From assembly GCF_030409755.1 (NCBI RefSeq), contig NZ_JAUFQE010000002.1:1922001-1986000 (forward strand): 64,000 nucleotides of DNA, written 5' to 3'. Under the pieces are notes generated by a model, which was not told the origin of the DNA, made no database searches, and saw nothing but the letters and a program-made list of their open reading frames with translations. Positions 12,012-14,021 of the stretch are shown here, one piece after another; position 1 is the stretch's first letter; each line of letters begins with the position of its first letter. Made by a program: the position numbers and the translations under genes. The DNA is from Vibrio lentus (GTDB lineage: Bacteria > Pseudomonadota > Gammaproteobacteria > Enterobacterales > Vibrionaceae).

Positions 12012-13222
12012 CTACTGTTTCGCATTCCACGTTTGCAATTTACGGTAAATCGTCGATGGACTGACATCCAAAAAGCCTGCCGCGCGAGGGATGTTACCAT
12101 CACACGCTTTTATGGCCTGCTCGATAGCCGTTTTCTCAGTGATCCACAATGGGAAAATATCTTTTACCGTGATGTCTTCATTCTGCTTCTCTTTCAGTCG
12201 CAGACTGTTTTCAATCGGTTGATTCAATGGCGGCGGAAGCATGTTCAGAGTAATCTCTTTACCATTATTCAATACCACCACATTTCGTAATACGTTTTGT
12301 AGCTGACGAACGTTACCCGGCCACTCGTATTGGTTAAAGCGATCCAGCACTTCCTGAGCAAAACGCACAAAGGCCTTACCTTCCTCAACAGACATATAGC
12401 CCAGCAGAGAGTACGCAATTTCAATAACATCTTCCCCACGCTCACGCAGTGGCGGCAAGTGCAAAGGAATCACGTATAAACGATAGTATAAATCTTCTCT
12501 AAAGCGACCTTCTTGTACTTCTTTCCAAGGGTCACGGTTAGTTGCACAAACAAAGCGCACATCAACGCTCTTCATTTTTGAAGAACCGACTTTTTGGAAA
12601 GTACCGGTTTGAATAAAACGCAGAAGCTTGGTTTGCAGTTCAAGATCCATTTCGCACAACTCATCGAGGAACAGGGTTCCACCATCTGCGAGTTCAGCCG
12701 CGCCTTGTCGATCCGTTGCCGCCCCAGTAAAGGCGCCTTTAACGTGACCAAACAGTTCACTCTCAATCAAATCTTTAGGAATAGCGGCACAGTTAATCGC
12801 AATGAAAGGCTTATCACCACGCTTACTCGCAGCGTGAATCGCTTCTGCACACACCTCTTTACCGGTGCCACTTTCACCTGTGATGAAAATACTCGCTTTA
12901 CTCGATGCTGCAGAATCGATCGTTCGGTAGACCTGCTGCATGGTTTGGCTGCTACCAATGAAGCCTTGATAGTTTTGATTACCGGGATGTTCAGCGCTGT
13001 TTTTGAGTTTTGTCGCTTTGCGGATCGCGTTGTTCACCGTAATACGAAGTCGGTCGGCTTCACACGGTTTGATAAGGAAATCTTGAGAACCATGACGCAT
13101 CGCTTCAACGGCCGTATCGATCGAGCCGTGAGCCGTCATAAAGATCACAGGAACTTCTGGGTATTTTTGTTTTACAGCAAATAGCACGTCCATACCCGTC
13201 ATATCAGGTAGACGTAGATCTA
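12012..13222 (-). pseudogene. luxO: luxO 3' fragment (AAA+ and DNA-binding domains), cut off by an IS200-type element
   Basis: Carries the end of the receiver domain, starting LDLRLPDMTGMDVL with the phospho-acceptor Asp as one of its first residues. The sigma-54 activator domain follows (Walker A TGESGTGKE, GAFTGA sigma-54 contact loop), then an HTH (GNIPRAAGFLDVSPSTIYRKLQTW). An ATG at 13202 could start a 396-residue product lacking most of the receiver. The missing front lies at 13843-14021 beyond the element. Whether the truncated protein is made or active is unknown. Confidence 0.9.
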
Positions 13223-13260
13223 AAAAATATCCGCCTTCTTAGAAGGCGGTTTTGCTTTAT

Positions 13261-13279
13261 AACCCCCTAGAAGGGGGCG
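13261..13279. terminator. GC-rich hairpin downstream of tnpA
   Basis: CCCCCT / AGGGGG stem with an AGA loop, just after the tnpA stop and before the left subterminal hairpin. It may end tnpA transcription or block read-through in luxO. There is no strong T-run. Confidence 0.4.
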
Positions 13280-13288
13280 TCCACGCTA

Positions 13289-13726
13289 TCAGTTCTTCAA
13301 TAACTGCAGTTGTTGTTCATACTCTATGTCCTGTTTATCTTGGTGTCGGACATATCGTCGAATGACTTCTTCATTCACACCGACCGTATCTACAAAATAC
13401 CCTCTAGCCCAAAAGTGATTTCCCCATAGTTTCTTACGTATATGTGGAAATTTATTGAAAAGTCTAATTGCTGTCCGGCCCTTTAAAACTCCTAACAAAC
13501 TCGAGATCGACAACTTGGGAGGAATAATGACAACAAGATGAACATGATCTGGTTGAACATTTAACTCTAAAACCTCGCAGTCTTTCATATTGCACAAAAT
13601 ATAAATTGAACGATAAAGCTCCTTTCCAACCTTATCTTTCAAAATCTTATATCTATACTTTGGAGTCCAAACTATATGGTATTTGCAACGCCAATAGACA
13701 TGTGATGAACTTCTGTAATCGCCCAT
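13289..13726 (-). CDS. tnpA: IS200-type HUH transposase TnpA
   Basis: 145-aa Y1 single-strand transposase. It starts MGDYRSSSHVYWRCKYHIVW, the typical family N-terminus; an upstream ATG at 13780 is less likely. The HUH metal motif is DHVHLVV and the catalytic tyrosine is in EEVIRRYVRHQ. The protein is full length, so the element is probably still mobile. It reads in the same direction as luxO. Confidence 0.95.
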   Translation of the reverse strand: MGDYRSSSHVYWRCKYHIVWTPKYRYKILKDKVGKELYRSIYILCNMKDCEVLELNVQPDHVHLVVIIPPKLSISSLLGVLKGRTAIRLFNKFPHIRKKLWGNHFWARGYFVDTVGVNEEVIRRYVRHQDKQDIEYEQQLQLLKN

Positions 13727-13842
13727 GTGGTTGTTTCCTCTTACTTGTGGTGAATAAGAGGTTACTTCTAACATGGGCACTTCTTCAGGCTATAGCCTAG
13801 AGGAACAATCACCACCGCCCTAGGCGGTGGTTTTGAGGAGCC

Positions 13843-14021
13843 AATAAAATAAGGTCTGGGATTCGATGATTCAAACTCTCAATTGCATCGCGGCCTGTGC
13901 CGACAATGTTGATATCAATCTCGAGCGGTGTAAGATACGAGCGATATAGAGCCGCTACTGAAGCGGTATCCTCTACCATCAACAAATACTTCGATTTGTT
14001 ATCTAGCGTTTTTGATTGCAT
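13843..14021 (-). pseudogene. luxO: luxO 5' fragment (start of receiver domain)
   Basis: Begins MQSKTLDNKSKYLLMVEDTASVAALYRSYL, the normal LuxO N-terminus with the acidic VED pocket. It runs to RIPDLILL, where the IS200-type element begins; translation would continue for about 10 foreign residues and stop. The native promoter and the shared qrr1-luxO control region lie directly upstream and look intact. Confidence 0.9.

What the first reader, a model, noticed from the sequence alone, without database searches (positions are those of the whole stretch)
12012..14021. Quorum-sensing regulator luxO is split by an IS200-type element at its phospho-acceptor site
The element lies between LILL and DLRLPDM. 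The codon for the conserved phosphorylated Asp is therefore the first one left on the 3' fragment, and the receiver is cut in two. luxU, qrr1, its sigma-54 promoter and the LuxO operator are all intact. Without LuxO-P the Qrr RNAs should stay off and the LuxR/HapR-type regulator on, locking the strain in the high-density state. Alternatively, the 3' fragment started at 13202 could make a receiver-less activator with altered behaviour.
Basis: partly seen in the sequence, partly recalled or inferred. Interest (0 to 1): 0.8.

Follow-up and report, generated by a model that had tools for sequence, protein, structure and literature searches.

The report
Quorum-sensing gene luxO cut by IS200
In this marine Vibrio genome a small jumping DNA element has recently landed inside luxO, the gene that tells the cells they are few, so the strain has probably lost normal density sensing; each part is known, but it is a useful natural experiment because a related regulator that might stand in is still intact.

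Summary
Confirmed. A 621-bp IS200-type element (13223-13843, minus strand) splits luxO inside codon 60, 3' of TTTAT, without target duplication; phospho-acceptor Asp61 heads the 3' piece. The site is uninterrupted in 80 of 80 relatives' luxO loci fetched. luxU, four qrr genes, the LuxR/HapR gene and the LuxQ frame are open. The 3' piece has no private amino-acid change, so the insertion is recent. Likeliest reading: luxO-null, Qrr low, LuxR on. (1) The element's right end is a terminator-like hairpin just before the 3' piece, so luxU, 23 nt downstream, is probably under-transcribed too. (2) If the 3' piece is made, published work predicts constitutive LuxO: the opposite, low-density lock. (3) The paralogue SypG is intact; in V. 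fischeri SypG activates qrr1, and here it lacks the autoinhibitory linker glycine. Natural luxO variants are already known, and among 227 Vibrio genomes one other luxO has a transposase gene between its pieces. A new member of a known kind; consequences are predicted, not shown.

The parts
13844..14021 (-). luxO 5' piece: codons 1-59 plus one base of codon 60; the frame runs into the element and stops (chimeric ORF 13809-14021, 70 aa: 60 LuxO residues then 10 from the element)
13223..13843 (-). IS200-type insertion element, 621 bp, inserted 3' of TTTAT, no target duplication
   Evidence: identical to 12 of 12 other copies compared, of 24 other full-length tnpA copies; uninterrupted site in 80 of 80 relatives' loci fetched
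13289..13780 (-). tnpA, IS200/IS605-family HUH transposase (HVH at residues 79-81)
13811..13831 (-). left-end hairpin of the element, upstream of tnpA
13217..13249 (-). right-end hairpin (13231-13249) followed by a T-run reaching the junction: terminator-like, directly before the luxO 3' piece
   Evidence: (-13.5 kcal/mol, z -3.10)
12012..13222 (-). luxO 3' piece: rest of codon 60, Asp61 to the stop; open frame 408 aa, first ATG at 13202 (396 aa): half receiver, linker, AAA+ and Fis-type HTH
11644..11988 (-). luxU, open Hpt phosphorelay gene, 23 nt after luxO
14069..14081 (+). LuxO operator (upstream activating sequence) of qrr1, TTGCATTATGCAA
   Evidence: same in 14 of 14 relatives in which qrr1 was found, of 16 looked at
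14145..14160 (+). sigma-54 promoter box of qrr1
   Evidence: same sequence in 10 of 14 relatives in which qrr1 was found; other forms in 4
14171..14262 (+). qrr1 small RNA
   Evidence: Rfam RF00378, 72.9 bits, cut-off 50

Best explanation
A multicopy IS200-type element transposed, recently and precisely, into luxO of a Splendidus-clade Vibrio. Shown: the split, the element, the uninterrupted site in the relatives read, open frames of the other circuit genes examined. Inferred: (a) no full-length LuxO is made; (b) the right-end hairpin stops most transcription before the 3' piece and luxU, and that piece has no Shine-Dalgarno-like sequence before its first ATG, so it is little expressed; (c) qrr1-4 then lack their main activator, Qrr stays low, and the intact LuxR/HapR-type regulator is made at all densities (high-density-like state), unless SypG supplies Qrr under biofilm-inducing conditions.
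For: Split and boundaries. Uninterrupted site in 80 of 80 relatives' loci fetched. 25 full-length TnpA copies incl. this one. No other LuxO. Recency: over the 396-codon 3' piece 41 synonymous and 1 non-synonymous base differences to V. lentus; 9 bases unlike all nine relatives compared, none changing an amino acid. Terminator-like ends: 13 terminator-like sites in 11500-14300 against a mean of 2.8 in shuffles, the element's two ends listed first; fold z -3.10. No Shine-Dalgarno-like sequence before ATG 13202, against AGGA before the native luxO start (read by eye). Four Qrr over the Rfam cut-off. LuxR/HapR, 201 aa, 406.9 bits against a cut-off of 350. LuxQ sensor domain in an 865-aa open frame. 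In the same clade a luxO null allele restored protease production (not to wild-type level) and the RpoS level in a varS varA csrB1 mutant of V. tasmaniensis LGP32 (PMC6262261, passages).
Against: No expression data. The 3' piece stays open (408 aa) and could be expressed from a promoter not found here; the scan found 4 promoter-like sites where shuffles give 4.5, so it neither shows nor excludes one. SypG could keep qrr on. In LGP32 protease was not restored to wild-type level by the luxO null. Pairing of Qrr with the luxR leader was not tested; LuxN, CqsS and the autoinducer synthases were not examined.
Confidence: 0.65

Rival explanations
1. The 3' piece (from ATG 13202) is translated and, lacking half of the receiver including Asp61, acts as a constitutively active LuxO: Qrr always on, LuxR off, a low-density lock.
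For: Receiver deletion makes LuxO constitutively active (PMC4878744 and PMC11407668, passages); a natural in-frame receiver deletion locks V. parahaemolyticus 882 at low density (PMC10426928, passages); the piece keeps linker, AAA+ and HTH in one open frame without private amino-acid changes.
Against: Terminator-like right end directly upstream, no Shine-Dalgarno-like sequence, no promoter signal above shuffles; a leftover half receiver may misfold. Lack of decay is equally explained by recency.
Confidence: 0.12
2. SypG takes over: Qrr genes are driven by the biofilm regulator SypG, so LuxR control follows surface or biofilm signals and not autoinducers.
For: SypG intact, 504 aa, Asp53 present; in V. 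fischeri SypG activates qrr1 independently of LuxO through overlapping sites (PMC10162802, passages); each of the four qrr genes has a LuxO-type site with 0-1 mismatch upstream; linker residue 141 is Asn, not the autoinhibitory Gly, and Asn in 29 and Asp in 1 of the 30 closest SypG loci read, G000 included; PMC10162802 suggests that such SypG are likely constitutive or otherwise adapted.
Against: Not tested in this clade; a luxO null in LGP32 still derepressed proteases, so SypG did not fully hold Qrr up there; two other genomes with disrupted luxO, G092 and G033, gave no SypG match at E 1e-180 while G002 and G221 did, so there is no general link.
Confidence: 0.15
3. Assembly artefact or a lesion confined to the sequenced colony.
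For: 25 near-identical copies make repeat errors possible; one genome only.
Against: Three-contig, 99.97% complete assembly; the junctions follow the TTTAT rule seen at the 12 other sites compared.
Confidence: 0.06

Closest known systems
Natural or laboratory-lineage luxO variants of V. cholerae (G333S, PL91) and V. parahaemolyticus (882, deletion 91-102) (PMC4888887, PMC11407668, PMC10426928: passages read)
   Same: A luxO change in a strain taken as wild type that uncouples the circuit from autoinducers
   Different: Those are a substitution and in-frame deletions reported to give an always-active LuxO; here an IS splits the gene and the likelier effect is loss
Engineered luxO null in V. tasmaniensis LGP32 (PMC6262261, passages read)
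   Same: Same clade, LuxO absent
   Different: Engineered; its effect on luxU was not seen in the passages
luxO of G092 (another, unnamed Vibrio species genome)
   Same: luxO with a transposase gene between its pieces
   Different: DDE-type transposase, cut near residue 323, behind the receiver
IS200 group of the IS200/IS605 family
   Same: One HUH transposase, hairpins at the ends, insertion 3' of a fixed short target, no duplication
   Different: No difference found; ISfinder name not determined

Membership tests
IS200/IS605 family, IS200 group | Y1 HUH transposase (TnpA) | tested here: met
   HVH at residue 79
IS200/IS605 family, IS200 group | No tnpB | tested here: met
   Within the 621 bp, ORFs of 50 aa or more are tnpA and one 64-aa plus-strand ORF
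IS200/IS605 family, IS200 group | Hairpin at each end, fixed 5' target, no target duplication | tested here: met
   (12 other copies plus this one)
IS200/IS605 family, IS200 group | No terminal inverted repeats | not tested
   seen only by eye
LuxO | Full-length receiver-AAA+-HTH protein above the NCBIfam NF041946 cut-off | tested here: not met
   3' piece 766.6 bits, 5' piece 65.6, cut-off 800: a luxO gene, disrupted
LuxO | Gene between qrr1 and luxU | tested here: met
SypG | LuxO-like enhancer-binding protein, distinct from LuxO | tested here: met
   599.6 bits against the LuxO model, below its cut-off of 800; aligned to LuxO with Asp53 and Asn141
SypG | Lies in a syp-type polysaccharide cluster | tested here: inconclusive
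   ORF translations read by eye against the recalled syp gene order; no family search of the neighbours apart from the Hpt protein
Strain locked at high density | Qrr low and LuxR high at all densities | not testable with these tools
   needs RNA measurement

The most novel reading that the evidence does not exclude
Loss of luxO has rewired this strain so that its four Qrr RNAs are controlled by SypG, whose linker lacks the autoinhibitory glycine in this clade: quorum-sensing outputs would be governed by a biofilm or surface signal and no longer by autoinducers, and the clade's unusual SypG would have made luxO loss tolerable.
Probability: 0.12. Interest if true: 0.65.

Novelty: new member of a known kind. 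Interest (0 to 1): 0.35.

Why it matters
A Vibrio with luxO cut but the other examined circuit genes open is a natural test of whether SypG with a non-Gly linker drives Qrr in the Splendidus clade, a possibility raised in PMC10162802 (passages) and left there for future study. It also adds a likely loss-of-function case beside the always-active luxO variants in the papers seen, and warns that phenotypes of this strain should not be taken as quorum-sensing wild type.

Tried and rejected
Second intact luxO elsewhere: rejected, the best other own-genome match is 57% identical and is SypG. Decay of the remaining circuit: not found for luxU, qrr1-4, LuxR/HapR or the LuxQ frame. A promoter driving the 3' piece: no signal above shuffles. 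A link between luxO loss and SypG: not claimed, since of four other genomes with a disrupted luxO two have a SypG match at E 1e-180 (G002, G221) and two have none (G033, G092). The TAG flags of G187 and G158 are not interruptions: the frames read open over 481 residues. Element matches in other genomes (30 of 227 genomes with a match, G000 included; full-length copies at 96% in G205, G120 and G117) are not copy numbers, because only the two best candidates per genome were scored. Paper searches on IS200 terminators, IS200 targets in Vibrio and IS-cut luxO gave nothing on point in their listings; the single hit only lists luxO in Aeromonas (passages). The first pattern search used a guessed codon choice and found nothing.

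Luck or selection: not tested; luxO is one of at least 25 sites of this element. Species: the nearest luxO and luxU are V. lentus (96.5%, 96.2%), but cofD and uvrB are nearest a V. splendidus strain (94.3%, 90.1%; the V. lentus locus gave no uvrB match and 92.3% for cofD), so only the clade is claimed.

Full report
What is there. The window lies on a 3.70-Mb contig of a three-contig, 5.90-Mb, 99.97% complete Vibrio genome. From uvrB leftwards the order is uvrB, qrr1 (plus strand, divergent from luxO), luxO 5' piece, insertion element, luxO 3' piece, luxU. The element is 621 bp, 13223-13843. The genome has 25 full-length tnpA genes including this one, on all three contigs, and one fragment. Of the 24 others, 12 were fetched: 12 of 12 are identical over 621 bp and follow TTTAT. 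The remaining 12 were not compared and encode a slightly different TnpA (98% against 99%). TnpA is an IS200/IS605 transposase.

The site. In 80 of 80 luxO loci fetched from named records (the best 80 of 364 relatives found) the site is uninterrupted. The upstream piece ends 178 nt into luxO, within codon 60; Asp61, the phospho-acceptor (position; published number D61, passages), starts the downstream piece. The upstream frame makes at most a 70-aa chimera; the downstream frame is open for 408 aa with its first ATG at 13202.

Age. Over the 396 codons of the 3' piece there are 41 synonymous and 1 non-synonymous base differences to V. lentus, and 9 bases unlike all nine relatives compared, none changing the protein. 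This, with the identical element copies, points to a recent insertion.

How common. Of 227 Vibrio species genomes, 211 have a LuxO match at E 1e-150. The row list was cut, so I re-ran the 61 matching genomes not seen in it and the 16 without a match. Broken luxO: G000; G092 (DDE transposase gene between the pieces); G033, G221 and G002 (frame breaks, in G002 also stops; sequencing error not excluded). G167 and G224 are partial matches in fragmented assemblies, G224's starting at base 2 of its contig. G187 and G158 were flagged for a TAG but read open. Of the 16 without a match, G002 and G033 carry luxO pieces; in the other 14 nothing at E 1e-60 is above 54% identity, the best being G025.

Rest of the circuit. 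Four Qrr genes over the Rfam cut-off, each with a LuxO-type site of 0-1 mismatch upstream. The LuxR/HapR-type regulator (201 aa; found) passes the NCBIfam cut-off, 406.9 against 350 bits; LuxU passes, 144.3 against 140. The LuxQ sensor domain lies in an 865-aa open frame. LuxN, CqsS and autoinducer synthases were not examined.

Transcription. The element's right end forms an 8-pair hairpin followed by a T-run ending at the junction, an intrinsic-terminator shape. luxU begins 23 nt after luxO, so luxU is probably reduced too; this is inference. No Shine-Dalgarno-like sequence precedes ATG 13202, while AGGA precedes the native start (by eye).

Function. LuxO uses negative control: deletion of the receiver is constitutively activating (PMC4878744, passages; PMC11407668, passages). 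Hence the two fates of the 3' piece have opposite outcomes: not made, high-density state; made, low-density lock. I favour not made. A luxO null in the same clade restored protease production, though not to the wild-type level, and the RpoS level in a varS varA csrB1 mutant (PMC6262261, passages), in line with a high-density state.

SypG. The own genome's second best LuxO relative is 57% identical over residues 3-329 of the 3' piece and lies among polysaccharide genes that look like a syp locus (by eye; gene order recalled). It has Asp53 and Asn141. PMC10162802 (passages) shows SypG activates qrr1 without LuxO in V. fischeri and remarks that N141 in V. splendidus makes constitutive activity or another adaptation likely. 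In the 30 SypG loci read (the best 30 of 151 matched genomes, G000 included) residue 141 is Asn in 29 and Asp in 1. In 78 of 80 LuxO loci the same linker position is Gly; L078 has Glu and L105 Arg.

Conclusion. A real, recent loss of luxO by an ordinary mechanism; the consequences are predicted, not shown. Searches that could have shown a published IS-cut luxO showed none in their listings (searches listed 20 of 41 and 20 of 35 papers); this library lacks most subscription papers.

Noticed in passing
L138 (G092:C6:1264500-1268000): luxO of another Vibrio species genome is interrupted near residue 323, with a DDE transposase gene between the pieces.
   Followed up: partly
L078 and L105: The LuxO linker glycine is Glu in V. 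intestinalis and Arg in V. penaeicida; a Glu at this place activates V. cholerae LuxO in print (PMC4878744, passages), so these may be naturally hyperactive.
   Followed up: partly
L109:11488-11925: Beside sypG sits a stand-alone 145-aa Hpt protein where V. fischeri has (recalled) the hybrid kinase SypF; a proVWX-like transport operon lies between it and a sypD-like gene (by eye).
   Followed up: partly
window 48912-51020: Two group II intron matches (RF00029 at 48912-48988, RF02012 at 50883-51020).
   Followed up: no
window 10303-10455: Molybdenum cofactor riboswitch in front of the moaA-like gene.
   Followed up: no
G127:C1:653243-655105: Three head-to-tail copies of an 80%-identical relative of the element in another Vibrio genome.
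   Followed up: no
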